From Rhodococcus sp. SBT000017 (GTDB lineage: Bacteria; Actinomycetota; Actinomycetes; Mycobacteriales; Mycobacteriaceae): a stretch of 64,000 nucleotides of DNA. The notes under the pieces were generated by a model. It had not been told where the DNA came from and ran no database searches. It worked only from the letters and a program-made list of their open reading frames with translations. Positions 13,085 through 32,465 of this stretch are shown here, one piece after another. The stretch is from assembly GCF_003688915.1 (NCBI RefSeq), contig NZ_REFU01000005.1, forward strand, positions 1 to 64,000, in the 5' to 3' direction. The translations under genes were made by a program, and so were the position numbers. Numbering within the stretch: the stretch's first letter is position 1; each line of letters starts with the position of its first letter.

Positions 13085-13160
13085 TATCGAGAAGTGCTGT
13101 TCCGAAACAACGTTGACGGTTCACGCAAGACGCAACGCCTACCGTCACTAGAATTCGACA

Positions 13161-14336: not shown

Positions 14337-14378
14337 GCCAACGACCCGACACCACATGGGAACCCGGCCAGCTCCGGG

Positions 14379-15620: not shown

Positions 15621-15725
15621 GGTCACATCCTCCCCTCTGGCCGAAGAGCACGAGGTGAAACTACGAGGCGCGCTCTTGCTCGGTCGGGCCGAGAACGAGC
15701 ATCTGCACATCGCGGCCATCGCCGG

Positions 15726-17124: not shown

Positions 17125-19290
17125 CTAGGCTGCGTTGCCGATGGGTGTCGGTGCGGTCTTGCTTTCGGCGACGAGATCCTCGGCCACGAGATAGACCGTC
17201 GGTTTGCCGCCGAGCCCGTTGTGGTCGATCTTCACGCACCGCAGGTCGGTACCCGGCGGGACGACGACCTCGTCCTCACCGGAGAACTGCGAGATCGATT
17301 TGACCGGGATTCCGTTGCGGGTGCGAATGACCATCATGTACGGCGGGTGTCCGGCGAACCCGTGCGCGACGGTCTCGCGGGTGCTGCAGCTGGTGACCTT
17401 GCCGATCTGCACCTTCGATCCCACACTGAATGCCTGGTCGATGTACTCGCCCGCGGTGCCCTTCCACCCCGACGGCACTTTCGTCCCGCGCATGACGGTC
17501 ATCGGCTGCTGGTTGGGGTTGTGCTCGTTGAACTTGTCGAATGCCGATTCCAGTTGTGAGACCGTCGATTTGATCGATGGAGGCGGTGTGGCGTCGCGCC
17601 CGGTGATGGCGGCGTTGATCTGCCGGTAGCTGCCACCGGTGTACGTGGTGAGCGCGGCGCGCTCTTTGCTGCCGAGGTGCTTCTTGACGAACTCCGAGTT
17701 CGATGCGGTCAGCGACTCGATCGAGGACACCTGCAGCGTGCCCGACGAGTTCGTGAACCCCCACTTCTTCAGGTCTCCGGCCCGTTGGGCGATCACCTCG
17801 TAGTCGCCCGCGGTCTCGACACCGAACGCTCGGATACCGGACCGTGTCAGCGCCGAATGCTTGTCGGCCCCGAGGCTCTCGGGTGGGATCTTGTGCTCGA
17901 AGTGCGGGATGACACCACCGCCGCGGGTGGGCGTGCCGAGAGCGCGCCGATGCGCGGCCGCGTAGGCGGCGTCGGCCTGCTGCGTCGAGCCACCTTCGGC
18001 GATGACCTTCTCGTGCGCCGCGCGCCCAGCGGCGACCGCGGCCTTCTCGCGCAAGGCCTTCTTGTGGCACTTGACGCCGTCGTAGATGTCGGCGCGGACA
18101 GGGCCCGCTCCCACGGCCTCGACCAGTTTGGTGTGCGCGCCGTCCATGCCTTTGTCGATGATCTGCTGGTGCTGCGCTGTGGTGCTGGCGCTGCCGTCGG
18201 CGGCTTTGCGGGCAACCTCGAGCGCGAGATCGCTCTTGACCGCGTGTGCCTGGCGCTGCATGTCGGTCGCGCCGTCGGGCAAGGCCTCGACGGCGGTCAT
18301 CACCGGGATGCGGTTGGCCTTGGCCAGCGCCTGCTGCTTGCTGCTGGCGGATGCCACCGCGTAGTACGCGTCGCCCTTGCGCTGGACGATGAGAAAGTCC
18401 GACGGGCCACGCCTGTAGATTCCGGTACCCCCGTCGAGAAGTCGACCTTCCACCTCGGTGATGCCGTCACCAGTGTCGACGGGAATTTTCGCTGCCGAGT
18501 AGACCGAGGTGTCACGATCGCGGCCCACCAGCGACAACGACCCGGTGCCTTGGAGAGCGTCGGTGGCCTCACCCGCGAAACGCCGGTTGTGGGATCGGGC
18601 GATGGCTTCGACGTCCGCGTCGGTCAGCTCGGCACACATGCGATCGGAACCAGCCTGGTCCAGGTCCACCCGTGTCCCGAACCGCGCCGCCACAAGATCG
18701 TCGGCCGCGTGCTCGCGCTCGACCTTCGCCGCGGCGTGCGCGGTCTTGGCATCTTCGAAAGCTTTCTCGCGCTCGGCGACATCAGCAGCGCTGCCGGTGC
18801 CGGCGTCGAGCTCCTTGGCCGCCTTGCGCAGTCGAGCGCGTTCCCGGTTGACCGCTTTGCGTGCGTCGTCCACTGCGAGTTCGGCTGCCGCATCGCGCTT
18901 CTGCGCCTCGTCGAGCGCGATCTGAGCGTCCGAGAGTTGTGGGCCGAGCAGTTTCTGCTGTTCCTTCTTAGCCTGAGCGATAAGCAGTTTCGCCGACGGA
19001 GGGTTGGCATGCACGCTCGGCATCGGGGTACCGCCGAGCACGCTCTTGTCGATCCCGAGCCCCGCCATCATCTCGGGCAACATGCTCGGTGGTGCCGCCT
19101 GAACAGCCGCGGCAGTCTCGACGAGGCCCTGCTCCTTGAGGTGCGCGACGACTTTCTTGCGCGCTTCGCGGCCCAGCCGCCTGTTGGCGTTCGCATTCGC
19201 AGCAGCGGAGTAGCTGCCACATTTCGGGCAGCGCCGCCCACCGTTGGATTTTGCCCGGCACATAGGGTCACTGTACTGCAGAAACGACAT
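17125..19290 (-). CDS. ADP-ribosyltransferase toxin with zinc finger and coiled coil
   Basis: A 721-residue multidomain protein. Residues about 10-25 form a Cys motif (MCRAKSNGGRRCPKCGS). Residues about 85-220 are a long Ala/Lys/Glu-rich coiled coil. The C-terminal about 140 residues are an R-S-E class mono-ADP-ribosyltransferase: Arg at about 601 (VMRGTK), an STS-type motif in SCST at about 634-637, and the ExE pair in GEDEVV at about 672-674. R-S-E transferases with ExE usually modify arginine. The ATG at 19290 follows a GGGGGGA site; the longer reading upstream is low-complexity and rejected. No signal peptide is seen. The adjacent ADP-ribosylglycohydrolase makes an effector-immunity or toxin-antitoxin role likely. 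Confidence 0.86.
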   Translation of the reverse strand: MSFLQYSDPMCRAKSNGGRRCPKCGSYSAAANANANRRLGREARKKVVAHLKEQGLVETAAAVQAAPPSMLPEMMAGLGIDKSVLGGTPMPSVHANPPSAKLLIAQAKKEQQKLLGPQLSDAQIALDEAQKRDAAAELAVDDARKAVNRERARLRKAAKELDAGTGSAADVAEREKAFEDAKTAHAAAKVEREHAADDLVAARFGTRVDLDQAGSDRMCAELTDADVEAIARSHNRRFAGEATDALQGTGSLSLVGRDRDTSVYSAAKIPVDTGDGITEVEGRLLDGGTGIYRRGPSDFLIVQRKGDAYYAVASASSKQQALAKANRIPVMTAVEALPDGATDMQRQAHAVKSDLALEVARKAADGSASTTAQHQQIIDKGMDGAHTKLVEAVGAGPVRADIYDGVKCHKKALREKAAVAAGRAAHEKVIAEGGSTQQADAAYAAAHRRALGTPTRGGGVIPHFEHKIPPESLGADKHSALTRSGIRAFGVETAGDYEVIAQRAGDLKKWGFTNSSGTLQVSSIESLTASNSEFVKKHLGSKERAALTTYTGGSYRQINAAITGRDATPPPSIKSTVSQLESAFDKFNEHNPNQQPMTVMRGTKVPSGWKGTAGEYIDQAFSVGSKVQIGKVTSCSTRETVAHGFAGHPPYMMVIRTRNGIPVKSISQFSGEDEVVVPPGTDLRCVKIDHNGLGGKPTVYLVAEDLVAESKTAPTPIGNAA

Positions 19291-19406
19291 GTCCCCCCGT
19301 GGGGTGGTACCAGCTGGATCCCGGCGGACAGGCCGGTTGCGAGGTTCTGCAGCGGAGGGTTGCTGACTGAGGCGATGGCGTCCGGACAAGGGCGATCGTG
19401 GAGTGG

Positions 19407-20369
19407 TTATCGGCGGCGTCGATCCCAACCGCGCTGAGCAGCGATGATGCAGAAATCGGAGGTGTCGTCGACGACGAAGTCCGTGGTATCGACGAGCGTT
19501 CGTTGTGCGTAAGCGAAGACGACGATGTTTTCCGCTTTTCTTGTATGAAACCGCTTCGCGTCGGTGCGGTGTTGCTCGATCCGATCGCGCATCGCCTCCT
19601 GTCGCCTTTTCGACCATGCGGACCATTCGATCCGCAATCGGTGCGGTTGCCTCGGCCGGTTTCCGCTCGAATCGATGGGACCGGCGAACAAAGGTAGGGC
19701 GATGTACTGGCCAGTGTCCTCTGGTGGCACGCTGAACATCAGGTTGGCGTAGACGATGAGGTTCGGCGCTTCGACGGTGTACCCGCTGGTGCCGAGGCGG
19801 GAGAAAGCCCTGTCGTAAGGGCCCTTGTAGGCATGCTCGCCGGCTCCACGTCCAGGCAGTTCGAGACGTCGTCCTGCGAACCCGACCTGCCGGTAGCTGA
19901 CGAAATGACTGCAGATCGGTAGGAGTGTCGACACTGGGCTCGGCCTCAAACCACTCGTGCGCTCACGCGCAGGGGCGTCGGAACCGCGGGACGACTGGCG
20001 CACTTGTTCGGCGGGGGCATCGGGATCGACGACCTCACGCTGCTCGTTCCGGACGAGTTCGGCTGGGAACGACGCCCCTGCTGTCAGTTGCGTTGCTGCA
20101 GGATGCACCACGCCATTACGAACCAGCATCTCTTGACCGGATATCTCGCAGCCCGACTGATGCGCAATACGGAAATGCGGTCGAGTGGCGTACTCCCCGC
20201 TGGGACTTGCAGGGTTCTCGCCTACTGCGACCATCGTCGCAGTGGCACGGCAGTCGGAACACCGATGCGGTCCGGCGTCGGATTTAGAGAACTTGCCGGC
20301 ACGGATCGACCGGTCGAGGTCCGATGCCCACTCCTCGTTTCTCGACCTATCGCTATAGGCGTAGTCCAT
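19407..20369 (-). CDS. protein with N-terminal zinc-finger-like motif
   Basis: A 320-residue protein. Residues 35-75 contain CSDC and later HFRIAHQSGC, a C2-H2/HC arrangement recalling the N-terminal zinc finger of CoiA-like proteins. The C-terminal part has beta-rich blocks (EAPNLIVYANLMFSVP, QYIALPLFAGPI) and a basic helix. GGGGAGGG precedes the ATG. It starts 71 bases after attH in the same direction, so read-through from the att operon is possible, but it is not a known att gene. Its function is unknown. Confidence 0.62.
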   Translation of the reverse strand: MDYAYSDRSRNEEWASDLDRSIRAGKFSKSDAGPHRCSDCRATATMVAVGENPASPSGEYATRPHFRIAHQSGCEISGQEMLVRNGVVHPAATQLTAGASFPAELVRNEQREVVDPDAPAEQVRQSSRGSDAPARERTSGLRPSPVSTLLPICSHFVSYRQVGFAGRRLELPGRGAGEHAYKGPYDRAFSRLGTSGYTVEAPNLIVYANLMFSVPPEDTGQYIALPLFAGPIDSSGNRPRQPHRLRIEWSAWSKRRQEAMRDRIEQHRTDAKRFHTRKAENIVVFAYAQRTLVDTTDFVVDDTSDFCIIAAQRGWDRRRR

Positions 20370-20440: not shown

Positions 20441-21601
20441 CTACGTGGTGTAGTCCGCGTTGATTCGAATGTATCCATCGGTGAGGTCGCAGCCGAACAC
20501 TGTCCAGGCGTCAGTGCCGATTCCGAGGTCGATGTTGATCTCGACGGTGGCCGTTGCCAGGTGTGCACGAACGGCCTCGATGGTGGCCTGCTGGTCGAGC
20601 GACGAGTTCGGATAGACATCGATGTCCGCGAAAGCAACTCGGACTTTGCCGGGATCTATGTCCACCTCGCTGCTGCATTTTCCGATGGCCATGAGAACTC
20701 GTCCCCAGTTGGGGTCTTCACCGTGGATCATGGTCTTGACCAAGGGAGAGTTGATGATCGACTTTCCGACCGTGCGCGCTTGGCGCTCGCTCGATGCGCC
20801 GGAGACTGTGGTGACGATCAGCTTGGTCGCACCTTCGCCGTCGCTGGCGATCATTTTCACTAGTTCCGTGCACACTTCCTCGAGAGCTTGCTCGAACGCG
20901 GTATCGGGTACCGGCCCGGCGGCACCGTTGGCGAAGATCGCTGCTGTGTCGCTGGTGGAGGTGTCGGTGTCGATCGAGACCGAGTTGTAGGTGCGGTCGA
21001 CGACGTCACGGAAGATTCGGTCGAGGGTGTTTTGGGGGACGTCGGCGTCGGTGAAGACGAACGACAGCATGGTCGCCATGTCCGGTTCTATCATCCCGAC
21101 ACCTTTGGCGATTCCGACGATGGTGCTGGTGCCGACGGTTCGTTCGGAGACCTTGGCGCGGGTGTCGGTGGTCATGATTGCTCGGGCCACTGCGTGCGCG
21201 TCGAGTGGTGTTCCCTGGCCGAGCCCGTCGAGTCCGGTGCGAATGGTGTCCATCGGATATTGCACTCCGATGACTCCGGTGGAGGCCATGATCAGGGCGT
21301 TGGGTTCGATTCCTACGGTTCGTGCGACGGATGCGCGTATCTCGGTGGCGTTGCGGAGCCCTTCCGCGCCGGTCGCGACGTTGGCGTTCTTGGCCAATAC
21401 GAGGACCCCGCGAGGACTGATCTGCTCGATCGAGGTCTTGCTCAAGGTGACGCAGGGGCCGGCGAACAGTGACTTCGTGAAGACGACCGAGGAGGTGCAC
21501 GGCCTGTCGGAGATGACCATGGAGAAGTCGTCTCTACCTTCGTCTGCGAGTCCCAAATGGGTTGTCCAGCAGTGAAACCCCCGTGGGGACGCGGCGCTCA
21601 T
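20441..21601 (-). CDS. attH: ArgJ-like ornithine acetyltransferase
   Basis: A 386-residue member of the ArgJ/OAT family, which moves an acyl group from N-acyl-ornithine to glutamate or related acceptors and matures by self-cleavage. The cleavage motif KGVGMIEPDMATML is at about 166-179, with the nucleophilic Thr at about 177. The ATG at 21601 follows AAAGGGCAGAC. It is the last att gene, 32 bases after attG. The clavulanate cluster contains a comparable OAT (oat2), which strengthens the parallel to clavam chemistry. Here it may acylate or deacylate an arginine-type intermediate. The symbol follows the R. fascians att order. Confidence 0.9.
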   Translation of the reverse strand: MSAASPRGFHCWTTHLGLADEGRDDFSMVISDRPCTSSVVFTKSLFAGPCVTLSKTSIEQISPRGVLVLAKNANVATGAEGLRNATEIRASVARTVGIEPNALIMASTGVIGVQYPMDTIRTGLDGLGQGTPLDAHAVARAIMTTDTRAKVSERTVGTSTIVGIAKGVGMIEPDMATMLSFVFTDADVPQNTLDRIFRDVVDRTYNSVSIDTDTSTSDTAAIFANGAAGPVPDTAFEQALEEVCTELVKMIASDGEGATKLIVTTVSGASSERQARTVGKSIINSPLVKTMIHGEDPNWGRVLMAIGKCSSEVDIDPGKVRVAFADIDVYPNSSLDQQATIEAVRAHLATATVEINIDLGIGTDAWTVFGCDLTDGYIRINADYTT

Positions 21602-21633
21602 GTCTGCCCTTTCCGATCCGTGTGATGTTGAAG

Positions 21634-23100
21634 TCAGGACGCTCTGGACCATGCCAGCAATGCGCGCCGGTCGGGCTTGCCGACAGACGTTTTCGGCCAG
21701 TCGGACATCAGAGTGATCTTTCCGATGAGACCGTAGCTGTTCATCACTTTGGTGACGCGAAGGTGGATTCGTCCGAGGTCTGCCCCGGTGGGTGTCAGGC
21801 GGCACAGTACTGTCGTCTGCTTATCTGCTCCTGTGGCCGTTGGGGCGAACACGACGACCTCGTCCACCTCGTCGAGTGCGGTGATCTCGTCGACCAGGAC
21901 GCCTGCCGAACAGAGTTGACCGTGGTTGTTTGTCCATACGTCATCGATGCGGCCCAGGACGTTGATGGCACCGTTGTCATGGACCATCACCGCGTCCCCG
22001 CTTCGGTACCAGCCGTCCGTGAATGCGCTCTGTGTACGGTCCGGGTCTCCCCAGTAGCCTTCTGCTCGGTGCGCTCGGCGGAATTCGGGCTCGCCCACTC
22101 GATAGGTATCTGCGTCGATTCCGTGGATGGGGCGCACTCGCATCTCCACCCCGGGTAGGGGTCGCAGTTCGGCCGCGCTCTGCAACTGTGGCCGCAGATC
22201 TGCGCACATGATGCCGCACTCGGTGGCCCCGTAGAGCCTGCGTAGGTGGACTCCGCACCGCTGGTGGATCAGCCGTGCAGTGGTCGGCGTCAGGAGAGCC
22301 CCGCCCGTCAGTGCGGTGGTCAGGTGTTCACCCATTCGCTCCGATGCCGCCGGTGACGCTGCGATCGCGTCGTAGTGCGAGGGAAGGGCGCTCATATAGG
22401 TACCGTTCCAGTCGCAAATCGCTCTCGCGAGGGCAGAGGCCGGGAGACCAGCGTCGAGGTGCACCGTGGGTGCTCCCGAGAGCAAGCCCGCGAGAACGTG
22501 AACGTCCATCCCGTGCGCGAAATCGAGGGGGTGGATGTTGATGATCACATCGTCGGCTGTCAGACCGAGCTGCTGGCACCAGTCGGTGCGGTCGGCGAAC
22601 AGCGATTCCTCGGTCCAGTACACCCATTTCGGCTCACCACTCGATCCGGATGTTTCGAGGATTCTTCCTCGCACGGCGTCGTGCTCGGTCACGTCGTGGT
22701 GACGCGTTGGGTTGCAGTATCGGAGCTTTCGGGTTGCTGCATCGAACACGGAGCCCAGTTCAGGCAGGCCGGGGTCGATGTCGTGGTCGGTGATGGCGTG
22801 CCAGCGGCGGCCCAGTGCGCTCAGTCGTTCCCATGCTGGATGCCGCGTCCGGCTCGCCAGGTGCACGCCGCCGGCGGCCATCGTTCCCAGTAGTGCTGCA
22901 ATGAAGTCTGCGGCCCCGGGGTGGTGATCGACGACGACCACGTCGCCTTCGTCGATCACCGGTGCCAGTGCGTCCCGCCATGCCGTCGCTGCGGCCGACA
23001 GCTCCCCGAACGTCGTATGGCGTCGTCCCTGGTGGAGTGCGTCCTGGTCCTTTTCGGGCATGCTGTTCAGTGCGGTGAGGAACCCTCGCGCGTCAGACAT
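21634..23100 (-). CDS. attG: AMP-forming acyl ligase (ANL superfamily)
   Basis: A 488-residue adenylate-forming ligase. The P-loop-like A3 motif TSGSSGEPK is near residue 180, an ATECG motif near 310, and YRSGDAV near 370. It should activate a carboxylate as an acyl-adenylate. The usual C-terminal lysine region (VGKPDRRALL) is present. The ATG at 23100 overlaps the attF stop by 8 bases. In this pathway it could activate a carboxylic acid for amide formation or the product for export; the substrate is not predictable. No carrier-protein gene is nearby. Confidence 0.88.
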   Translation of the reverse strand: MSDARGFLTALNSMPEKDQDALHQGRRHTTFGELSAAATAWRDALAPVIDEGDVVVVDHHPGAADFIAALLGTMAAGGVHLASRTRHPAWERLSALGRRWHAITDHDIDPGLPELGSVFDAATRKLRYCNPTRHHDVTEHDAVRGRILETSGSSGEPKWVYWTEESLFADRTDWCQQLGLTADDVIINIHPLDFAHGMDVHVLAGLLSGAPTVHLDAGLPASALARAICDWNGTYMSALPSHYDAIAASPAASERMGEHLTTALTGGALLTPTTARLIHQRCGVHLRRLYGATECGIMCADLRPQLQSAAELRPLPGVEMRVRPIHGIDADTYRVGEPEFRRAHRAEGYWGDPDRTQSAFTDGWYRSGDAVMVHDNGAINVLGRIDDVWTNNHGQLCSAGVLVDEITALDEVDEVVVFAPTATGADKQTTVLCRLTPTGADLGRIHLRVTKVMNSYGLIGKITLMSDWPKTSVGKPDRRALLAWSRAS

Positions 23101-23836
23101 TGATCTGTCCTCGGAACAAGTGTCTGACGCTGCCCGGTTCGATCGTTGTCCGCCCGTGCAGAACCTGTTCGTTGTCGAGGACGAGAAGATCACCCGGGGC
23201 CCAGTCGTGCGAGTAGAAGCTGGCACTGCCCCGCAGGTAGGAATCGAGCCGTGCGAAGACGGCCCGGCTGTCTTCTTCGGTCGAGCCCGCCAGACGGACC
23301 GACCATCCTGCGGGGGTGGTCCGTTCCTCGGTGAACGGAAGTGCCACGTTCAACCGCGTTGTCCCCGTAGCTGATCGCACTGCAGGTGGAATCGACAGCC
23401 AGCGGTGCGCAACGTCGGGAAAGTGGGATTGGTCGGTGACGTAGTACTCCCAATCGACGTCGGTCACCGTGCTCAGGTCCGGTGGGAGTGTCGCATCGAG
23501 TAGCTCCGATTGCAGACAGAGTTCTGTGCGTCCGGATCCTGTGGGCTGATCGACAGCATTGCAATACAGCGCAATGTATTTGGGACAGGTCCCGACAAGT
23601 GTGCCGTCGGTGTGCAGAGGCAGGGCGCTGCGCCCGGTGACGACGCGGTCCGGTAGCGGACTTGCGTCGAGATCGAGCAGACCTGCGCTTCCGGTGCCGA
23701 ACCGATGTGTGGCGAGAGTCCCGAGCCCCTGCACGAAGACCTCGAAGTCGCTTCTGCCGAAGTTGACGTCGCCGACCAGAGCGAATCCATCCCGGGTGGC
23801 CACTGCCGCGAGATCTCCGGGATCGATTGCCGTCAC
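23093..23836 (-). CDS. attF: clavaminate-synthase-like Fe(II)/2-oxoglutarate oxygenase
   Basis: A 247-residue TauD/clavaminate-synthase-like oxygenase, shorter than clavaminate synthase itself (about 325). The metal facial triad is visible: HTD at about 75-77 (LPLHTDGT) and the distal His at about 227 (QVLHGRT), with a basic residue about 11 positions later for 2-oxoglutarate. It overlaps attE by ATGA and attG by 8 bases. In clavam synthesis such enzymes hydroxylate, close rings and desaturate the beta-lactam intermediate. Here it follows the beta-lactam-synthetase-like gene directly, suggesting a similar step. Confidence 0.9.
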   Translation of the reverse strand: MTAIDPGDLAAVATRDGFALVGDVNFGRSDFEVFVQGLGTLATHRFGTGSAGLLDLDASPLPDRVVTGRSALPLHTDGTLVGTCPKYIALYCNAVDQPTGSGRTELCLQSELLDATLPPDLSTVTDVDWEYYVTDQSHFPDVAHRWLSIPPAVRSATGTTRLNVALPFTEERTTPAGWSVRLAGSTEEDSRAVFARLDSYLRGSASFYSHDWAPGDLLVLDNEQVLHGRTTIEPGSVRHLFRGQINV

Positions 23837-24993
23837 CGCTGCTCACCGCCGACCGCAACATCGTGGTCTCCCAGAGGGACCTCATCGAGCGTCTGTGCCC
23901 GAATTCGGGCACAGACGGCAGCCAGTTGTTCTCCGAGCGCGCCGTCCAACCCCGCTGACAAACCCGCCCCTTGGTGGATTGCGACTTTTCTCCCGAACGC
24001 AGTCTCACCGGGCAGTTGGTAGGCCGCGAGCTCGCGGAGATAGTACTTTTCGATGCCGTCGACTGTCTTCAGCTGAGCGGGGACACTCTGTTGAATGTGC
24101 AGTAGAGCAGGACTCCAGTACGGGTGGTACATGCGCGGCCCTGGGGTGAATTGGCCGGTCACCATCATTCCTGATGCGCTGGCGTCGTCGATACGTTCGT
24201 TCAGATCGCCGGCGACTGCGCCCATACCGAAATCGCTTCCGGCGTTGAGCAGATCGCTGCCGAGTCCGGTCACGAGGTCGGCACCACATGCTCGCGCCAA
24301 CTCGAAGGCCACTGTCACCAGCAGATGCACGGTGATGACTTCTGCATCATCGGATTGAGTGTGCTGCATGCACGGGTAGATCGCCGCTGTCGATTCCTGT
24401 GCGGTGACGTCGATGACGTCGAGCGGCAGACCGACGTGGCGCGCTGTTCGAGAGGCACCGTCGATTTCGTCACCCCAGGGTGTGCGGAGGGTCAGTGCAC
24501 GGACGTCGGCACCGGCCCTCCACAAGTAGGAGGCGAGGAGTCCGGAGTCGACACCACCGGAGAGCAGCAAGCGAATAGGACGCCCCGACGATGCAATTTC
24601 CGTTGCTGCAGTGCGTAATCCATGGTCGAGCCACCCCATGGCCTGTTCGAGCGAACACCCTGGGACACCGCCCGACGGCGACGATCGGGGGACAGCGCGG
24701 TGCACCGACAACTCTCCGTCGGCGGAGCAGACCAGGGTCGTCCCGGGGCGAAGTGCCGTGGTGGTTCCTACACGGTGACCGACACTCGCGGCAGTCGCCG
24801 CGAACTGCGATCCCACCGCCCATGTCCGTGCATCATCGGTGCGGGAGAGAAAGACTCGGCATTCGCCGTGCAGCGGCGTTGTGATCATGACTGTTCCGTC
24901 GTTGCGGTTCAGCACGGGGCCGGTATGTCCGCCAACACGGCGGATGCAGCCGCTGCGCGAAAAGACGACCCACCCATGATCGGTTGGGGTCAT
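23833..24993 (-). CDS. attE: beta-lactam-synthetase-like amidotransferase
   Basis: A 386-residue asparagine-synthetase-fold enzyme. The ATP-pyrophosphatase loop LLSGGVDSG is at about 143-151. The N-terminal domain lacks the Cys-2 nucleophile needed for glutamine hydrolysis, as in beta-lactam synthetase (Bls) and carbapenam synthetase, which close a beta-lactam ring inside one substrate. YYLRELAAYQL and GRKVAIHQGAG near the C-terminus match the region of the catalytic Tyr/Glu and Lys of those enzymes. It is shorter than Bls (about 510). The ATG overlaps the attD stop (ATGA). Ring closure is a family inference. Confidence 0.88.
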   Translation of the reverse strand: MTPTDHGWVVFSRSGCIRRVGGHTGPVLNRNDGTVMITTPLHGECRVFLSRTDDARTWAVGSQFAATAASVGHRVGTTTALRPGTTLVCSADGELSVHRAVPRSSPSGGVPGCSLEQAMGWLDHGLRTAATEIASSGRPIRLLLSGGVDSGLLASYLWRAGADVRALTLRTPWGDEIDGASRTARHVGLPLDVIDVTAQESTAAIYPCMQHTQSDDAEVITVHLLVTVAFELARACGADLVTGLGSDLLNAGSDFGMGAVAGDLNERIDDASASGMMVTGQFTPGPRMYHPYWSPALLHIQQSVPAQLKTVDGIEKYYLRELAAYQLPGETAFGRKVAIHQGAGLSAGLDGALGEQLAAVCARIRAQTLDEVPLGDHDVAVGGEQR

Positions 24994-25814
24994 GGGTTGT
25001 CTCCGACAATTGTGCGCATCTTCTGTTGGGCCGCATCGCCTGCAGCGAACCCCGCTCGGTGGCCGGCTATTGCTGCAATACGGGCTCGTTCCATGTCGAG
25101 CAGCAGATCGTGGTTGACGAACGCCTTGGTGCGGGCAAACGGCACCGATTGGTACTCGGCCAGTGCCTGTGCTCGGGCGCATCCTGCAGCGAGCGGGTCA
25201 CTGTGGGCTGCAACGAGTTCATCGAGGAGGCCGTCGGAAAGTGCGGTGGCACCGAGCCATCGATCGCACCCGATGATCATTCGATTCGCCACGGCAGGCC
25301 CTACTCGGCGTTGCAGGAGCGGAGCTCCGAGTATGCAGGAGATACCCAACTTGAGCTCGGGCATACGGAGGTCCGACGTCGACGTTCCGATGCGCCAGTC
25401 GGCGCACAGTGCCAGCTGAAGACCGATGCCGATGCAGTATTTGTCGATGACTGCCACGGTCGGTTTCGAGATCGACAGAACTGCTCGATACATGTCCACG
25501 CAGGCGTCGATCCATCGATTGACCTCGGAGCCTCCCGTGAAGTCCTTGACTTCGTTGAAGTCACCGCCGACACCGAAGGATCGACCGTCTCCCCCGTACA
25601 GAACCAGCCCTTCGACATCCGGGGTGTCCCCTAGCTGCCAGACCAACTCGGTGATGCCGCGCATCTTGTCTGTGGAGAACGTGTTGTGTCCTTCACCGTC
25701 GAATTCGATGATCGCCAGGGGGCCGTTGCGAACTGCAGTACCGCCATGGGCTTCGGGCGACCTCGGCCGATCGTGGGGCTCGTGGGTGGCGGAGGGTGAG
25801 TGCAGTGTTCTCAC
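24990..25814 (-). CDS. attD: crotonase-fold enzyme (carboxymethylproline-synthase-like)
   Basis: A 274-residue enoyl-CoA hydratase/isomerase superfamily protein. Crotonase oxyanion segments are visible at GRSFGVGGDFNE (about 80-92) and KYCIGIGLQLALCADWR (about 125-141). The GTG at 25814 gives a 4-bp GTGA overlap with attC and keeps the coupling pattern of the operon. In carbapenem synthesis a crotonase (CarB) joins malonyl-CoA to an amino-acid aldehyde to make the beta-amino acid closed by the synthetase. The same job here would supply the substrate of AttE. Confidence 0.87.
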   Translation of the reverse strand: MRTLHSPSATHEPHDRPRSPEAHGGTAVRNGPLAIIEFDGEGHNTFSTDKMRGITELVWQLGDTPDVEGLVLYGGDGRSFGVGGDFNEVKDFTGGSEVNRWIDACVDMYRAVLSISKPTVAVIDKYCIGIGLQLALCADWRIGTSTSDLRMPELKLGISCILGAPLLQRRVGPAVANRMIIGCDRWLGATALSDGLLDELVAAHSDPLAAGCARAQALAEYQSVPFARTKAFVNHDLLLDMERARIAAIAGHRAGFAAGDAAQQKMRTIVGDNP

Positions 25815-26389
25815 GCTTCGACCAGCTCCCCGCGCTTTCGGCGGTCTGCGTCGAGGGCGCGGCGTGTGTAGAGACGTTGTCCCCATTGTTCGCTGTGATC
25901 GGCGGTGATAGTGGTGCCGTTGCATATTGCGGTGACGATTCGATGGAATTGAGCCAGTGCGACGGCGGCGGTGCGTTCGCTCAAGCTCGTCTCGGATTCG
26001 CCTGGGACGATGTCGAATCGGTCGACCGCGATGATCGGACCGCCATCTACCTTCGGGGTGATGATGTGGCAGGTGGCCCCGAATTGCGTTTGGTTGTCGT
26101 CGATCGCGTAGCGGTATCCGCCGATCCCTCGGTAGTTCGGGGTCGCCGGGTGGAAGTTCACGGCCAGTTCCCGCACTCGATCGAGTGTGGCCTCGGACAG
26201 GATGAAGTCCGATTTGAAGGAAAGAAGCAGGTCGCATCCGTGCCACTGATCGAACGATCGAGTCACTGGATCGCCGTAGTCCCAGGCAAACCAGTCGACG
26301 TCGGCGAATCTGCGGCGGAGAAAGTCGTGGGCGAGTTCGCCCCACCGTGATCCGTCGGAGATGAGCAGAACAGAACGGGTGTCTTTCAT
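25811..26389 (-). CDS. attC: 10-formyltetrahydrofolate-dependent formyltransferase
   Basis: A 192-residue formyltransferase-fold protein, about the size of GART (PurN) and of the catalytic half of methionyl-tRNA formyltransferase. The catalytic triad is intact: NFH at about 78-80 and the Asp in KVDGGPI at about 115. The C-terminal tRNA-binding domain is absent, so a small-molecule amine is the likely acceptor. ATGA overlap with attB. It may formylate an amine of the att metabolite, a step not present in clavam or carbapenem pathways. Confidence 0.88.
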   Translation of the reverse strand: MKDTRSVLLISDGSRWGELAHDFLRRRFADVDWFAWDYGDPVTRSFDQWHGCDLLLSFKSDFILSEATLDRVRELAVNFHPATPNYRGIGGYRYAIDDNQTQFGATCHIITPKVDGGPIIAVDRFDIVPGESETSLSERTAAVALAQFHRIVTAICNGTTITADHSEQWGQRLYTRRALDADRRKRGELVEA

Positions 26390-27573
26390 CGAGTGACAAC
26401 TCCTTCGGTGAGTGGGAGAGCCCAGCAGTACGCGAATCCGGCACCTGCTTCGTGTCGAAAGGTGTCGGCCTCTTCGTAATCGGCGAGTGCCGAGCTGTAT
26501 CGGCCGTATTTCGGGGACGTCCGGCCGATGCATCGAGCGGAGCCCTTGTACAGCTCGACGGTCACTGTGCCCGTCACGCGGTGAGCCAGACGGGCGCAGT
26601 AGGCATCGAGTGCTGCACGTAGATCGGTGAACCAGTAGCCGTAGTAGACCAACTCTGCGTACTGGTCGGCGATAGACCGCTTGTGGTGGAGCGTCTCTCG
26701 GTCCAGTACGAGTGCTTCGAGATCGGTTCGTGCAGCGAGAAGAACTGTTGCAGCGGGTGCTTCGTAGATTCCGCGGCTCTTGAAGCCGACGATGCGGCTC
26801 TCGAGAATTTCGGTACGCCCGATACCGTTCGCGGCCGCTGTGTCTCCGAGTTCGCTGACCAGGTCGATCAGGTCGAGCTTGCGGCCGTCGAGAGCGACGG
26901 GGATGCCTGCTTCGAACTCGATCGTGATCGTTGTTGCACGATCCGGTGCCTGCGCCGGCGCGGTCGTGATTTGCCATGCGTCGGGCGGTGGAGCGTGGTC
27001 GATGAGGTCGAGATCCCCGCACTCGATGCTGGTGCCCCAGATATTGGTGTCGATGCTGTACGGCGTCGTCTTGCTGACACCTACATCGATACCGTGGAGA
27101 TCGGCGTAGGCGATTTCGCTACCGCGCGAGGTCATTTCCCAGTCGATGACAGGTGCGAGGATGTCGAGTTCGGGAGCCAACGCCCGCACGGAAGTGTAGA
27201 AGCGGACCTGATCGTTTCCCTTGCCCGTGGCACCGTGAGCGACTGCCGATGCACCGCGTTCGCGAGCGATGCTGACCAGCCGCTCGGCGATCAACGGTCG
27301 AGACAACGGTGCTGCCAGAAGATATTTTCCCTCGTATGCAGCGCCGGCGGCGAGAGCCGGGATTGCGTAGTCGTGGAGGAACAGGTCTCGGACGTCTTCG
27401 ACGATCACTTCCGACGCGCCGGCCGCGGTTGCGCGCTTCGAGACGGCCTCGAGGTCCTCGATTTGGCCGAGGTTCGCGCAGTACGCGATGACCTCGGTCT
27501 GATAGCGCTCTTTGAGCCAGTGCACGGCAACGGATGTGTCCAGTCCGCCGGAATATGCCAGGACGATGCTCAT
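26386..27573 (-). CDS. attB: argininosuccinate synthase
   Basis: A 395-residue enzyme joining citrulline and aspartate with ATP to argininosuccinate. The PP-loop AYSGGLDTS lies at residues 5-13. GKGNDQVRF (about 117) and the ATP/citrulline residues of the family are present, and length is normal. The ATG overlaps the attA stop (ATGA). Chromosomal argG normally does this job, so the plasmid copy either boosts arginine supply for the att metabolite or builds a guanidine on a citrulline analogue. Confidence 0.93.
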   Translation of the reverse strand: MSIVLAYSGGLDTSVAVHWLKERYQTEVIAYCANLGQIEDLEAVSKRATAAGASEVIVEDVRDLFLHDYAIPALAAGAAYEGKYLLAAPLSRPLIAERLVSIARERGASAVAHGATGKGNDQVRFYTSVRALAPELDILAPVIDWEMTSRGSEIAYADLHGIDVGVSKTTPYSIDTNIWGTSIECGDLDLIDHAPPPDAWQITTAPAQAPDRATTITIEFEAGIPVALDGRKLDLIDLVSELGDTAAANGIGRTEILESRIVGFKSRGIYEAPAATVLLAARTDLEALVLDRETLHHKRSIADQYAELVYYGYWFTDLRAALDAYCARLAHRVTGTVTVELYKGSARCIGRTSPKYGRYSSALADYEEADTFRHEAGAGFAYCWALPLTEGVVTR

Positions 27574-29087
27574 ACCCCGACCTCCATCGCGGGTTCGGGC
27601 ACGCTCACGCCGCCGACGACGGATCGCGCTGCTCGTAGGCATTCCGCCTTCGCCTCCCAGAGGCGGGTTCTGGCTTGCCGGATTTCGGAGAGTCTGTCGG
27701 TCACGTCGGCCAGGCCCTGCTCCTGCTGTTCGGCGACCCGCGTCGGTCCGGTGGATCCGGCAGAGATGTAGCTGCGCAGTGTGTGGAGGGGATCGCATAT
27801 CTGCTTCATGTCGACCTCACTGATGTCGATGTCGTGTTCCTCGCGGAGGAAAGTGGTGGTGAACGCGACGTTGCGCAGGGTGTGACCGGCTTCAAGGGCG
27901 GCGTTGACGAGGTCACCGGTGATGCGGTGGGCTGTGCGGAAAGGAACGTCGAACCGAGAGACCAAGATGTTGGCGATCTCTGTCGCGGTCGAGAAGTTGT
28001 CCCAGCACAGGGCTCTGCCGCGAGCACCGTCGAACGCGGTGTGGAGGTTCTGGCGTCGGCACAGGCGAATGGTGTCGAGGTACGTATCGAGGGCACCCCA
28101 GTAAACCGGTTTGTCCTCCTGCAGGTCGCAGCTGTACCCGAGACCGACCGACTTCTCCATCACCAGCAGTTGCACCAGCGCACCCACCGCGCGACCGGAC
28201 TTCCCTCGCGCCAGTTCTGCAACCACCGGATTCTTCTTCTGCGGCATGATCGAGCTACCGGTCGCGAAAGAATCGTGCACTTCGGCGAGAGCGTATTCGT
28301 TCGAGCTCCAGGTGACGATCTCTTCCTGCATGCGAGACAGATTCACAGCACCGCTGGCAGCTGCGCCCGCTACTTCGACTGTCCAGTCCCTCGTCGAGGT
28401 CGCATCGAGCGCATTGACCATCGGTGCATCGAACCCGAGAAGCCGGGAGGTGTAATCGCGGTCCAGGGCGAATGTAGTTCCGGCGAGCGCACACGCGCCG
28501 AGCGGATTGATGTTGATGCGCTTCCAGGCATCCATCAGGCGGGAGGCATCACGCAGCAAGGCCTGTGCGTGCGCAGCCTTCCAAAATGCTACCGAAATAG
28601 GTTGCGCTGCCTGCGAATGCGTGTAGCCGGGTAGAACTGCTTCCCGTTCCGACTCGGGGCACCCGAGCAGATCCTGCGCGAACATGAGCAATTCTTCGCT
28701 GGCATCGAGCAGCCACTCGCGGGTGACCATGCGTGCGTCGGTCTGCACCTGATCGTTTCGGGACCGTGCGGTGTGCATGCGGCCGCCGACGGGTCCGATC
28801 CGTTCGATGAGCATGAATTCGGTGTTGAGGTGCACATCTTCTTGTCGGACGTCGAGCTGCAATCCACCGTCGGCTCGGCTGCTCTCCATGTCGAGCAGCC
28901 CAGCGAGAAGCGCTTTGGTGTCGGGTTCGGTGTTGATTCCCGCGCGACCGAGCATCAGAACATGAGCGATGTTCTGCCACAGGTCGTGTTCGAGCATTCT
29001 GCTGTCCACCGATGCTGTCTCCGTGTAGCGAAGTACATCGTCGGTGATATCGGTGGAGAATCTTCCACCCCAGAGCTTTTCGCTCAT
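27570..29087 (-). CDS. attA: argininosuccinate lyase
   Basis: A 505-residue fumarase/ASL superfamily enzyme that splits argininosuccinate to arginine and fumarate. The family signature GSSIMPQKKNP holds the catalytic serine loop, and HTARSRNDQVQTD and GYTHSQAAQP are also conserved. It is somewhat longer than usual (about 465) owing to a C-terminal extension. A GGGG-type site lies upstream of the ATG at 29087. It is the first of eight coupled att genes, 199 bases after attX, a gap large enough for its own promoter. Confidence 0.93.
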   Translation of the reverse strand: MSEKLWGGRFSTDITDDVLRYTETASVDSRMLEHDLWQNIAHVLMLGRAGINTEPDTKALLAGLLDMESSRADGGLQLDVRQEDVHLNTEFMLIERIGPVGGRMHTARSRNDQVQTDARMVTREWLLDASEELLMFAQDLLGCPESEREAVLPGYTHSQAAQPISVAFWKAAHAQALLRDASRLMDAWKRININPLGACALAGTTFALDRDYTSRLLGFDAPMVNALDATSTRDWTVEVAGAAASGAVNLSRMQEEIVTWSSNEYALAEVHDSFATGSSIMPQKKNPVVAELARGKSGRAVGALVQLLVMEKSVGLGYSCDLQEDKPVYWGALDTYLDTIRLCRRQNLHTAFDGARGRALCWDNFSTATEIANILVSRFDVPFRTAHRITGDLVNAALEAGHTLRNVAFTTTFLREEHDIDISEVDMKQICDPLHTLRSYISAGSTGPTRVAEQQEQGLADVTDRLSEIRQARTRLWEAKAECLRAARSVVGGVSVPEPAMEVGV

Positions 29088-29286
29088 TGATCGGTACCCC
29101 TCTGTGTGCGTGATGGTTCGGTTTCGGTACAGGAAAGTTCGGGTCAGGGCACGGCAAAGCCAAGACCTAGCGGGGATTGGACTGCCCGCGGCGTGAACCC
29201 GACCGGGCGTCGTTACGCAGTCAGGTCGAGCTCGGGTCGAGTAGTTGAAAGAGCGAAGGGAGAAGGGCTCGGACGGCCGGGGGTGT

Positions 29287-29910
29287 CTACTCGAAGGCCA
29301 GCCGGACGCCGAAGCCCACCAGAACAACACCCAGTCCACGCTCGAGCCACGCCCCCACGCGGCCCTTCTCCAGGAACCGGCGAGCGGACGAGGCGAGAAG
29401 TGCGTACGAGGACAGACATATCAGCGCCACCACGAACTCGATCGACATGAGCAGCATGGACCACACGAAGACGTTCCCGTCGCGCGGAATGAACTGAGGG
29501 AGCACCGCCAGGTAGAACGCACCCATTTTCGGGTTCAGCAGGTCTGCGACGAAACCGGTCATGAACGCCCGCGACCACTTCGGCTGGTGCGCACTGTAAG
29601 TCGCGGCATCGACGTCGGTGAAGCTGCCCTTCCGCTGCCAGATGCTCTCGATTCCCAGGTACACCAGGTAGGCAGCACCTGCGATACGTACCGCGTCGAA
29701 TGCCCCGGGGACGCTGGTGAGCAAAGATGCCAGCCCCACGGCCGCAGCGATGCCCCACGCCATCGACCCGGTCGCCGCACCCAACGCGACGGCGACGCCG
29801 TGACGCACACCGCCGGTCAGCGAGTGTTTGACCGCCAGCATGACGTCAGGGCCTGGAATTATTCCGAAGACGATAGCGACAGGGAGATAGGCCAGAACGG
29901 GGTTGTTCAC
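29287..29910 (-). CDS. attX: LysE/RhtB-family exporter
   Basis: A 207-residue membrane exporter of the LysE family, which expels basic amino acids and derivatives. Six hydrophobic segments are readable, the first with the conserved GIIPGPDVML (about 16-25). The GTG at 29910 gives the usual family length; an earlier start would overlap the attR promoter. It is divergent from attR with a 75-base spacer, like the lysE-lysG pair of Corynebacterium. It probably exports the att product, in line with an extracellular signal. Confidence 0.9.
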   Translation of the reverse strand: MNNPVLAYLPVAIVFGIIPGPDVMLAVKHSLTGGVRHGVAVALGAATGSMAWGIAAAVGLASLLTSVPGAFDAVRIAGAAYLVYLGIESIWQRKGSFTDVDAATYSAHQPKWSRAFMTGFVADLLNPKMGAFYLAVLPQFIPRDGNVFVWSMLLMSIEFVVALICLSSYALLASSARRFLEKGRVGAWLERGLGVVLVGFGVRLAFE

Positions 29911-29985
29911 GGCGAGAACGGTACGACCACCCCGGTTTCGATGCACGTTTCCTAAGTATCGCTGATCTAGGTTTAGTATTTGTGG
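29911..29985. promoter_or_regulatory. attX/attR divergent promoter with LysR-type box
   Basis: TAGTAT (29974-29979) is a -10 placed 6 bases before the attR ATG, implying a leaderless attR message. Upstream, TAAGTATCGCTGA (29953-29965) fits the T-N11-A LysR-family box and lies inside CCTA/TAGG inverted arms (29951-29971). AttR bound here could control both directions. Confidence 0.58.
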
Positions 29986-30918
29986 ATGTACAACCACGAT
30001 CAGCTCGCCACTCTTGCCGCGATCTGCGATTCAGGGTCGTTCGAGGGGGCCGCAACGGCGTTGCACATCTCGTCTTCTGCAGTCAGCCAACGCATCACCG
30101 CGCTCGAACGAGCGTCGGGGGCCGCGTTGCTGCAGCGAACCAGGCCGGTACTGCCCACAAGAAACGGGCAAGCTCTGCTCCGACTCGCGCGGCAGATCGA
30201 AGTCCTCACTGTCGACGCCGACGCTGAGCTACGCGGCGGCTCCACGACAACGAATACTTGTGCACCACTTCGCTTTTCATTGGCTATCAATGCTGATTCG
30301 GTCTCGACGTGGTTCCAACCGGTGATGAAAGCGATCGCCGTCGACCGACGAATACTGCTGGACCTGCACATCGAAGATCAGGACCATACAGACGCTCTAC
30401 TGCGTCAGGGCGCGGTCATGGCCGCCGTGACGACCTCACGCACCGCAGCACCTGGCTGTACTGTCGAACCGCTCGGAGCCATGGTCTATTGGCCCGCATG
30501 CGCACCGTCACTCATTCGCGACGCCGATGTTGACTGTTGCGATCCCAGTCGCCTCCCGATGCTGCGATTCGACAAAAAAGACGACCTGCAACACGCCTAT
30601 CTGCGCAAGATCAAAGCGCACCGCGAGCCCCCGATCCACTACCTTCCATCGAACCGAGAATTCCTGACTGCAGCTCGACTGGGGCTCGGGTGGGGCGTGC
30701 TACCGGAGGGGCAAATAGCGCGCGACCTCGCCGACGGGACACTCGTTCACCTCGACCCCGACCACAACGTCACCATTCCCCTGTATTGGCAACGGTGGCA
30801 CTTGCCATCCGAGACGCTCGACAGGATCACAAGCTGGGTACGCGATGCAGCCCATCACGCATTGATCGAGACACCCGTACAGCCCACGCCCTCGAGAACT
30901 ACCCGAGTCGGGGGTTAG
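29986..30918 (+). CDS. attR: LysR-family regulator, ArgP/LysG type
   Basis: A 310-residue LysR-type regulator. The N-terminal winged helix (residues 1-60, GSFEGAATALHISSSAVSQR) closely resembles ArgP/LysG, regulators that sense lysine or arginine and control a LysE exporter. The C-terminal two-lobed effector domain is complete. The ATG at 29986 is chosen over a TTG at 29980 because a -10 box ends 6 bases upstream. Divergent placement beside attX supports direct control of export and of the att operon, with arginine or the att product as plausible effector. Confidence 0.92.
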   Translation: MYNHDQLATLAAICDSGSFEGAATALHISSSAVSQRITALERASGAALLQRTRPVLPTRNGQALLRLARQIEVLTVDADAELRGGSTTTNTCAPLRFSLAINADSVSTWFQPVMKAIAVDRRILLDLHIEDQDHTDALLRQGAVMAAVTTSRTAAPGCTVEPLGAMVYWPACAPSLIRDADVDCCDPSRLPMLRFDKKDDLQHAYLRKIKAHREPPIHYLPSNREFLTAARLGLGWGVLPEGQIARDLADGTLVHLDPDHNVTIPLYWQRWHLPSETLDRITSWVRDAAHHALIETPVQPTPSRTTRVGG

Positions 30919-30945: not shown

Positions 30946-31569
30946 CTACAGGGGTGGCACGACGAGGATCGTGACGCCGGTTTCCTTCTGCCATCGCTCC
31001 AGCAGGTCGGTTCGGTCGACGAGCGCATCGGTCGAGTTCACGCCGTGAGTGGCCGAATCGGCGCGGGCTCCAGCGGAGTCGAAGATCGCCACGGCGCGGT
31101 GGTCGTGCTCGAGTTCGTGTCGAGCCCAGTACCGCACGCCTGCGAAGCCGGCCGCGTGCAGCGATGCCGCCCACCGCTGCGTCAAGGGGTAGTTGGAGGT
31201 GTCGAAGATTTCACCGGTGACCCCGTACGCCACTCCCTTATTGCTGGTCAGGTCTGCAACGACGAGATCACCTGCCAACGAGACCGATGAGATGGATACC
31301 CCCTCGATCGAGTAGTCCGGCACCGCTTTCATGCCACCGAATTTCTCGAGCAAGGTGATCACTTCGTCTTCGGCGACGTAGCAGGTGCCGTGGGTGCCGG
31401 CCAGGTCGAATCGGCCGGCACCGTTGTTCGTGAAATACCACGGACCGCGACCGCTGCTGTGCGAACGGACGAACGCGGTGCCGGCCGGATACGTGTGCGT
31501 CGGGAATCCTGCCAGCTGCGCTGGAGGGTTCGGTTCGGACAGGTGGTTCGTGGCGCGTTCGGCGCTCAC
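30946..31569 (-). CDS. RES-domain toxin
   Basis: A 207-residue RES-domain protein, the toxin of RES/Xre pairs such as MbcT, which destroys NAD+. Candidate catalytic positions are the Arg in AFVRSH, the Glu in VAEDEVITLLE and the Ser in IFDSAG. The GTG start overlaps the upstream antitoxin stop by the GTGA pattern, which fixes the start and couples toxin to antitoxin translation. It is tail to tail with attR, 27 bases apart. Confidence 0.85.
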   Translation of the reverse strand: MSAERATNHLSEPNPPAQLAGFPTHTYPAGTAFVRSHSSGRGPWYFTNNGAGRFDLAGTHGTCYVAEDEVITLLEKFGGMKAVPDYSIEGVSISSVSLAGDLVVADLTSNKGVAYGVTGEIFDTSNYPLTQRWAASLHAAGFAGVRYWARHELEHDHRAVAIFDSAGARADSATHGVNSTDALVDRTDLLERWQKETGVTILVVPPL

Positions 31570-32096
31570 GCGGCGTACGCGTCGGCGGCTTGCTGAGCAG
31601 CTCGCACGACCGAGGGGACGTCGTCGCCGTCGATCAACGCCTGGCGGGGTGTGCGCCCACCGAGTTCGGGCTGAGCTGTGGTCAACCACGAAGCGGTCGC
31701 CCAGCCCCGCGGATCGGCACCGGACCAAGCGCGGAGGACATCGGGGATACCGAGAATCGGCTTTGCCGGACGCTGGTCGGTGAATGTGGCAGCGGCGTAG
31801 CCATATTCGCCGTTGCTTCCGGTCAGCCGCAATACCCGAGATTCGCCGACAGCCTTGTGCAGCGCCTGACGGGTGGTCCAGCCCGCCAGCTCCCGGGTCT
31901 GGGTCGCGGTGAGGATGTCGCCGATGTGTGCTGTCCACGCTCGACGCGCGCGAAGACCGCTGAGCACGTGGACGATTCCGTCCTTGACGTAGTCGACGTC
32001 GCCAGCCGACGGGGCGTAGCCCAGTTCGGACACGAACACCCCGGTCACGCGCTCGGCGATTGCTGCGGATTCGGCATCGATACGTGGTGCTGACAT
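31566..32096 (-). CDS. MbcA/Xre-like antitoxin of RES toxin
   Basis: A 176-residue helical protein. The C-terminal segment (WLTTAQPELGGRTPRQALIDGDD) is typical of the toxin-binding end of MbcA/ParS-type antitoxins, and the front half is helix-turn-helix-like. It lies directly before the RES toxin with a 4-bp overlap. The start at 32096 fits the family better than the long upstream reading through 32447. It probably represses its own operon and neutralises the toxin. Confidence 0.82.
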   Translation of the reverse strand: MSAPRIDAESAAIAERVTGVFVSELGYAPSAGDVDYVKDGIVHVLSGLRARRAWTAHIGDILTATQTRELAGWTTRQALHKAVGESRVLRLTGSNGEYGYAAATFTDQRPAKPILGIPDVLRAWSGADPRGWATASWLTTAQPELGGRTPRQALIDGDDVPSVVRAAQQAADAYAA

Positions 32097-32261: not shown

Positions 32262-32465
32262 ATGGACAAGGACACACGGAAGGTTCTGCAGGAGCTGGAG
32301 CGGCAAGGCTTCGCGGTGCGGATCTCGAAGGGTGGCCACCCGATGGTCTACAAGGACGGCGTGCGAATCACGACGTTCTCCGGATCGGCGAGTGACCGCC
32401 GTTCCTTCCGGAACGCGTTGGCTCCGTTGAAGCGAGCAGGCTTCCAATGGCCGCCAACACGGTGA
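32262..32465 (+). CDS. hicA: HicA-type mRNA interferase toxin
   Basis: A 67-residue HicA-like protein. The double-stranded-RNA-binding-like fold is suggested by DTRKVLQELERQGFAVRISKGGHPMVYKDG, with the catalytic His at about 26 in KGGHPMV and the usual basic C-terminus. A GGGGAGGTGAG ribosome site precedes the ATG. It is somewhat divergent from classical HicA. The downstream gene with an HTH domain is the likely antitoxin, and a very strong hairpin lies between them. Confidence 0.78.
   Translation: MDKDTRKVLQELERQGFAVRISKGGHPMVYKDGVRITTFSGSASDRRSFRNALAPLKRAGFQWPPTR

What the first reader, a model, noticed from the sequence alone, without database searches (positions are those of the whole stretch)
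20441..30918. att locus: arginine-derived, probably beta-lactam-like signal pathway
Eight minus-strand genes, seven junctions of which six overlap, combine a beta-lactam-synthetase-like enzyme without the glutaminase Cys, a clavaminate-synthase-like oxygenase, a CarB-like crotonase and an ArgJ-like acyltransferase with arginine-making enzymes. The known clavam gene for N2-(2-carboxyethyl)arginine synthase (a ThDP enzyme) and the amidinohydrolase are absent, while a folate formyltransferase and an AMP ligase are extra. The product should therefore keep the guanidine, build its beta-amino acid through the crotonase, and may be N-formylated: a hybrid of clavam and carbapenem logic. Matching the R. 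fascians att locus is from memory of that family; the product structure is, to my knowledge, unsettled.
Basis: partly seen in the sequence, partly recalled or inferred. Interest (0 to 1): 0.8.

Follow-up and report, generated by a model that had tools for sequence, protein, structure and literature searches.

The report
Arginine-linked, carbapenem-like att pathway
A gene cluster first known from a gall-forming plant bacterium looks like a carbapenem-antibiotic pathway tied to arginine metabolism, but its ring-closing enzyme has lost the residues that normally do that job, so it may make an unusual signal molecule instead.

The parts
20441..21601 (-). attH: OAT2-like ArgJ (ornithine/glutamate N-acetyltransferase), 386 aa
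   Evidence: TIGR00120 336.7 bits, cut-off 298; best solved relative 1vz6 425 bits; in the cassette clade of ArgJ
21634..23100 (-). attG: class I adenylate-forming ligase, 488 aa, substrate unknown
   Evidence: PF00501 106.9 bits; 8ra0 152 bits, next 73
23093..23836 (-). attF: CarC-like Fe(II)/2-oxoglutarate oxygenase, 247 aa, Phe at the CarC Tyr165 position
23833..24993 (-). attE: BLS/CarA-type adenylating synthetase, 386 aa, short N-terminal part, Tyr348/Glu382 dyad lost, Lys443 kept
24990..25814 (-). attD: CarB/ThnE-type crotonase (carboxymethylproline-synthase type), 274 aa from GTG; a shorter 242-aa start is annotated in D188
   Evidence: 5o34 206 bits, CarB 146, next 68; residues; annotations
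25811..26389 (-). attC: small folate-type formyltransferase, 192 aa, N-x-H and D catalytic positions present
   Evidence: PF00551 48.9 bits; alignment to GART
26386..27573 (-). attB: argininosuccinate synthase, 395 aa
   Evidence: TIGR00032 447 bits, cut-off 268; tree
27570..29087 (-). attA: argininosuccinate lyase, 505 aa
   Evidence: TIGR00838 438 bits, cut-off 280
29287..29910 (-). attX: LysE-type exporter, 207 aa
   Evidence: PF01810 119.7 bits
29980..30918 (+). attR: ArgP/LysG-type LysR regulator; annotated relatives start at the ATG at 29986
   Evidence: TIGR03298 312 bits, cut-off 273.6; annotation starts

Best explanation
att is a carbapenem-type (CarB/CarA/CarC-like) small-molecule pathway tied to arginine metabolism, in which the amide-forming enzyme has been re-wired. 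Proposed working: AttH, with AttB and AttA, feeds the ornithine/arginine pool or shapes a guanidine-bearing building block (inferred). AttD joins malonyl-CoA to pyrroline-5-carboxylate/glutamate semialdehyde or a close relative, giving a carboxymethylproline-type beta-amino acid (active-site residues shown, reaction inferred). AttE adenylates that acid and forms an amide (ATP-site motif and Lys443 shown); with its Tyr/Glu dyad gone it probably does not close the ring as BLS and CarA do, and may make another lactam or an intermolecular amide (inferred). AttF oxidises the product rather than epimerising it (Phe at the Tyr165 position shown, consequence inferred). AttG adenylates a further acid and AttC formylates an amine (families shown, substrates unknown). 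AttX exports the product and AttR, an ArgP-type sensor, responds to it: the autoregulatory compound of the literature (inferred).
Against: No chemistry was tested. Four Nocardia-type clusters have F, E, D and G without arginine enzymes, so the arginine link is not universal. G718 and L008 lack the OAT2-like ArgJ in the stretches held, and L008 shows no D. The Acinetobacter cassette has no ArgG, ArgH or AttC, so these are not needed by every dyad-less cluster. The AttE tree does not resolve BLS, CarA and AsnB. Tyr348 alone is also lost in five of the 13 related rows outside the clade, so its loss is not peculiar to att. The roles of the dyad, Lys443, CarB E131 and H229 are recalled, not from a call.
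Confidence: 0.5

Rival explanations
1. att makes a true beta-lactam of carbapenam or carbapenem type: AttE still closes the four-membered ring, with another base or substrate assistance in place of the Tyr/Glu dyad, and AttF desaturates or hydroxylates it.
For: Trio is CarB/CarA/CarC-like; Lys443 and the ATP motif are kept; Tyr348 is lost alone in related rows whose genes sit in similar clusters, e.g. L007, L040.
Against: Both dyad residues and a conserved Arg (BLS column 441) are changed in 12 of 12 rows of the AttE clade.
Confidence: 0.3
2. The product is an antimetabolite of arginine biosynthesis, and AttH (with AttA and AttB) are insensitive copies of its targets rather than biosynthetic enzymes.
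For: A separate ArgJ lineage travels with the cassette in 11 of 13 clusters across two phyla, beside a housekeeping ArgJ in 7 of 7 such genomes checked. A review (abstract in the listing) says P. syringae antimetabolite toxins target amino-acid metabolism enzymes; that mangotoxin acts on ornithine acetyltransferase is recalled.
Against: 1vz6-type ArgJ also belongs to the clavulanate cluster (recalled), whose product does not hit ArgJ; amidinotransferases in two clusters point to guanidine chemistry; no inhibition data.
Confidence: 0.15
3. One reading: a guanidine-keeping, possibly N-formylated beta-lactam made by hybrid clavam and carbapenem logic.
For: OAT2-like ArgJ; AttC keeps catalytic positions; ArgG/ArgH in 5 of 13 clusters and amidinotransferases in 2.
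Against: AttF is CarC-like; no ThDP enzyme or amidinohydrolase; dyad lost; AttC not found in the 11 clusters of the 13 outside Rhodococcus.
Confidence: 0.1

Closest known systems
att locus of Rhodococcus fascians (pFiD188 of D188, pA21d2 of A21d2)
   Same: Same ten genes in the same order, 96.6-96.8% identical DNA
   Different: Other plasmid surroundings and no strong IPT match in the genome
CarA/CarB/CarC carbapenem pathway (Pectobacterium enzymes; CarABC-like genes of Pantoea sp. At-9b, L038)
   Same: AttD, AttE and AttF are nearest, or equal nearest, to CarB, CarA/BLS and CarC among solved structures outside the S. cattleya-type CarB homologue
   Different: AttE dyad lost and N-terminal part short; Phe for CarC Tyr165; arginine enzymes, ligase and formyltransferase added; proline dehydrogenase- and ferredoxin-like genes of L038 absent
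Thienamycin-type crotonase (S. cattleya plasmid, L037)
   Same: AttD scores the S. cattleya ORF at 206 bits, as 5o34
   Different: AttE finds the S. cattleya synthetase only at 50 bits; no AttF or AttG hit in that stretch at E<=0.01. That this is the thienamycin cluster is recalled; the record is unannotated
Clavulanate pathway
   Same: OAT2-like ArgJ and a BLS-type enzyme
   Different: CarC-like oxygenase; no ThDP enzyme or amidinohydrolase; a crotonase instead
Tabtoxin pathway of Pseudomonas syringae
   Same: A plant bacterium pairing a BLS-like (TblS) and an oxygenase gene (TblC) with amino-acid biosynthesis genes (passages of PMC3927611)
   Different: Lysine branch, not arginine; no crotonase in the gene table seen; sequences not compared here

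Membership tests
R. fascians att locus | Ten genes attR, attX, attA-H in order, close in sequence | tested here: met
   96.6-96.8% DNA identity and the same gene order
Carboxymethylproline synthase (CarB/ThnE) - AttD | Sequence nearer to CarB/ThnE than to other crotonases | tested here: met
   206 and 146 bits against 68 for the next of 135 hits at E<=0.001, best 60 shown
Carboxymethylproline synthase (CarB/ThnE) - AttD | CarB G62, W79, Q111, E131, H229 | tested here: met
   All five kept; position 108 is Ile (Met in CarB, Val in the S. cattleya enzyme)
Carboxymethylproline synthase (CarB/ThnE) - AttD | Makes carboxymethylproline | not testable with these tools
   Needs enzyme assay
Beta-lactam synthetase / carbapenam synthetase - AttE | Nearer to BLS/CarA than to asparagine synthetase | tested here: met
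Beta-lactam synthetase / carbapenam synthetase - AttE | Catalytic dyad Tyr348/Glu382 (BLS numbering; role recalled) | tested here: not met
   Leu and Met in AttE; lost in 12 of 12 clade rows
Beta-lactam synthetase / carbapenam synthetase - AttE | ATP motif SGGxDS and Lys443 | tested here: met
   Kept in AttE and in all 12 clade rows
Asparagine synthetase - AttE | Nearest to AsnB, with N-terminal glutaminase Cys | tested here: not met
   AsnB third in score and fold; no Cys at the protein's start
Carbapenem synthase CarC - AttF | Nearest to CarC in sequence and fold; Fe ligands kept | tested here: met
Carbapenem synthase CarC - AttF | Tyr165, proposed hydrogen donor for C-5 epimerisation (PMC6097109) | tested here: not met
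   Phe in AttF and in six other clusters read; Tyr in L007, L013, L040, L046 and the Pantoea protein
Clavaminate synthase - AttF | Nearest to clavaminate synthase | tested here: inconclusive
   Not in the 22 sequence hits or the 50 fold rows; no direct comparison made
Clavam pathway | ThDP-dependent carboxyethylarginine synthase and amidinohydrolase in the cluster | tested here: not met
   No such Pfam domain in the ten genes; the rest of the genome was not searched for them
OAT2-like ArgJ - AttH | Nearer to 1vz6 than to housekeeping ArgJ | tested here: met
   425 bits against 138+71 (1vra) and 103+40 (3it4) over two chains; clade apart from nine housekeeping ArgJs
Tabtoxin-type pathway | Sequence relation of AttE/AttF to TblS/TblC | not tested
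   Toxin genes of a plant pathogen, named only; none fetched

The most novel reading that the evidence does not exclude
AttE stands for a class of beta-lactam-synthetase relatives that have traded the Tyr/Glu dyad for a hydrophobic pair and no longer close a four-membered ring. They form a different lactam, or an amide with an arginine-type amine, and this clade (Rhodococcus, Nocardia, Amycolatopsis, Acinetobacter) makes signals rather than antibiotics from carbapenem parts.
Probability: 0.35. Interest if true: 0.8.

Novelty: new variant of a known kind. Interest (0 to 1): 0.6.

Why it matters
The att autoregulatory compound was proposed in 2001 (title in reference lists), and a 2025 paper still speaks only of 'an autoregulatory compound' (passage of PMC12130866). 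Reading attD-E-F as a CarB/CarA/CarC-like trio names a testable committed step, AttD with malonyl-CoA and pyrroline-5-carboxylate, and a mass to look for. The dyad loss makes AttE a natural test of what a beta-lactam synthetase can turn into. The company of arginine enzymes in 12 of 13 clusters from two phyla suggests a wider family of arginine-linked pathways, with short cassettes in Acinetobacter and Glaciimonas that may be easier to study. A genome with att but no strong IPT match is one more case, beside those of PMC7261884, for a role of att apart from gall formation.

Tried and rejected
Clavaminate-synthase relation of AttF: dropped as the leading reading. Its absence from those lists does not exclude it.

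True asparagine synthetase for AttE: third by score and fold. The tree could not settle the deep branching (long branches; BLS and the S. cattleya enzyme flagged as possibly drawn together), so I rest on scores and fold.

A LysR T-N11-A box near attX/attR: one match in 170 bases against a mean of 0.44 per such window: no signal.

Identity of 8ra0, nearest solved relative of AttG: one literature search found no paper; left open.

Wider searches for AttE: 7 of 301 genomes of the family at E<=1e-20; with profile A1, 1 of 394 of the class at E<=1e-25, the window's own; 12 of 392 of the genus of G661; 1 of 250 of the order of G660, Glaciimonas itself, at E<=1e-20. All are samples of larger groups.

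Base of '13 clusters': window, L005, L006, L036, G661 (L009), G662 (L010), G663 (L011), G664 (L012), G699, G718, G988, G909, L008. The stretches examined run from 7.9 to 64 kb. Left out before counting: L001-L004 and L041-L043 (same species or near-identical att), L044 (4.1 kb; probably the genome of L005), L045 and L046 (under 4 kb), the second Acinetobacter plasmid, and six weak hits that I did not fetch (G711, G723, G738, G748, G843, G911). L007, L013, L040 and G879 (0 of 4 with arginine enzymes) are counted apart as Nocardia type; that split follows the AttE tree for L007, L013 and L040, while G879 was placed by its similar gene set only. In G909 E is matched in two pieces and D only in part; in L008 no D was found. 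In G661 the ArgJ lies about 28 kb from E, in G699 ArgH and ArgG about 21 kb from E. Control: the 22 distant AsnB-like loci L014-L035 show no attD, F, G or H partner at E<=1e-5 (0 of 22; some are short contigs).

Dyad groups: the group of 7 was chosen after I had seen, so I count instead the 13 related rows outside the AttE clade in the tree (Glu kept 13 of 13; Tyr 8 of 13, Val 4, Trp 1).

Published descriptions: in searches of an open-access library I saw no paper in the listings that calls att CarB/CarC-like or notes the dyad loss; one search matched 4,345 papers and listed 20. Maes et al. 2001 is not held; that its abstract speaks of open reading frames like arginine and beta-lactam genes is recalled, so I do not claim the beta-lactam likeness as new. 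Papers were seen as listings and passages, none in full.
Full report
WHAT IS THERE. Window 20441-30918 holds ten intact genes: attH, G, F, E, D, C, B, A and X on the minus strand and attR on the plus strand. Between attA and attH six of seven junctions overlap, five by 4 bases and one by 8; attX is 199 bases upstream of attA and 69 bases from attR. The block is 96.6-96.8% identical to three plasmid records of Rhodococcus fascians A21d2 and D188, and 68-91% identical by protein to a complete att locus in Rhodococcus sp. H36-A4, L005. dN/dS against D188, A21d2 and H36-A4 is at most 0.35 in 30 comparisons.

WHAT THE GENES ENCODE. AttA and AttB pass the curated cut-offs for argininosuccinate lyase and synthase, AttH for ArgJ, AttR for ArgP/LysG regulators; AttX is a LysE-type exporter. 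AttC is a small formyltransferase whose alignment to GART keeps the positions of N106, H108 and D144 (these as the catalytic residues are recalled), though it scores far under the PurN cut-off (51 against 150 bits). AttG is an adenylate-forming ligase whose nearest solved relative, 8ra0, stands well above the rest (152 against 73 bits). AttD is nearest to 5o34, 'carB homologue' (206 bits), and CarB 2a7k (146), with other hydratases from 68 bits down; an ORF on the S. cattleya plasmid scores the same 206 bits and is probably the same protein. AttD keeps the CarB positions G62, W79, Q111, E131 and H229, with Ile at 108. [quoted passage not shown] the roles of E131 and H229 are recalled.

THE CASSETTE TRAVELS WITH ARGININE ENZYMES. 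D, E, F, G and H occur together on an Acinetobacter indicus plasmid (37-54% identity, ArgJ divergent, no attA, attB or attC relative in the 25 kb held), in Glaciimonas immobilis and in two Micromonospora. Streptomyces clusters hold F, D and E, most with a weaker AttG relative, and often an NRPS, which in L009 has condensation, adenylation, carrier and thioesterase domains. Of 13 distinct clusters, 11 carry an OAT2-like ArgJ, 5 carry ArgG and ArgH, 2 carry amidinotransferases (the tested one scores 1bwd at 312 bits), and 12 carry at least one. Four Nocardia-type clusters carry none, and 22 distant AsnB-like loci show none of D, F, G or H (G879). Seven of seven genomes checked with a cassette ArgJ also have a housekeeping one, while the two Nocardia have a single ArgJ (Glaciimonas has a third, short match). 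Cassette ArgJs (8 distinct rows) form one clade apart from nine housekeeping rows, support 100/99. AttB groups with the ArgG near the G699 cluster (97/99); the ArgGs of the G661 and G718 clusters form another branch whose place among the rest is open. So the arginine enzymes do not look like chance neighbours.

HOW IT MOST LIKELY WORKS. See Best explanation. Shown: the families, kept and lost residues, and the recurring company. Inferred: every reaction. Supply of a precursor or guanidine, and duplication of a target, both remain open for the arginine enzymes. Amidinotransferases in the Micromonospora clusters lean to guanidine chemistry there, without showing it for att.

AGAINST WHAT IS KNOWN. 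Creason et al. 2014 write that some att proteins resemble antibiotic-biosynthesis enzymes and that the metabolite is not identified (passage of PMC4092121). A 2025 paper calls it an autoregulatory compound (PMC12130866). Whether att is needed for full disease is contested (passages of PMC5726852, PMC5951678, PMC7261884). PMC7261884 reports complete att loci without fas genes in strains 311R and SBT000017. The window's genome is a like case: with the IPT family its only match is 21 bits, whereas three related att-bearing genomes have one of 292-297 bits about 11 kb from attE. I have not identified the strain, and did not search for the other fas genes.

VERDICT. A known locus, and a new variant of the carbapenem/beta-lactam kind. 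The advance is the corrected trio, the dyad loss and the arginine-linked family.

Noticed in passing
window 9643-16814 and 32314-54622: The backbone on both sides of the att segment is 96.3-97.5% identical to a 77-kb linear plasmid of A21d2 (NZ_CP049750.1), not to its virulence plasmid. In that record the two matches meet with a 4-base overlap, without the 15.5-kb att segment. In the window the start codon of the ADP-ribosylglycohydrolase gene and the first 52 bases of a 67-residue ORF lie inside the att segment, so the record reads more easily as a loss in A21d2 than as an empty site.
   Followed up: partly
genome G000: The IPT family (PF01745) gives only a 21-bit match in the window's genome, while G256, G263 and G281 have a 292-297-bit match about 11 kb from attE: att apparently without fasD.
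   Followed up: partly
window 17125-19626 (-) and 15726-16814 (-): An ORF with a C-terminal ADP-ribosyltransferase exoenzyme domain lies beside an ADP-ribosylglycohydrolase gene: perhaps a toxin and immunity pair.
   Followed up: no
window 30946-32096 (-): A RES-domain gene and a small partner follow attR, perhaps a toxin-antitoxin pair; pA21d2 has the same pair in the same place.
   Followed up: no
window 32262-32465 (+): A 67-residue ORF, HicA-like by eye only.
   Followed up: no
P0030-P0050: AttC-like formyltransferases at about 60% identity occur in Catenulispora sp. NL8 and a Propionibacteriaceae MAG, for which the AttE search lists nothing; a R. qingshengii AttC relative sits on a contig of the same length as an AttE relative.
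   Followed up: no
L011 2-3326 and 6454-8384, and L012: The two Micromonospora clusters also hold two amidinotransferase-like ORFs, an iron-containing redox (haem-oxygenase-like) enzyme and a DAP-epimerase-like protein.
   Followed up: partly
L007, L013, L040 and G879 region: A second cluster type in Nocardia and Streptomyces with AttF-, AttE-, AttD- and AttG-like genes beside NRPS genes and no arginine enzymes; AttE-like proteins there mostly have Val for Tyr348.
   Followed up: partly
L001 11394-12131 and L002 10551-11279: Public annotation starts attE of pA21d2 at 245 aa and attD of pFiD188 at 242 aa, though the DNA matches the full 386 and 274 aa.
   Followed up: yes
L038 18435-19298: An ornithine carbamoyltransferase gene lies about 7 kb from the CarC-like gene of Pantoea sp. 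At-9b.
   Followed up: no
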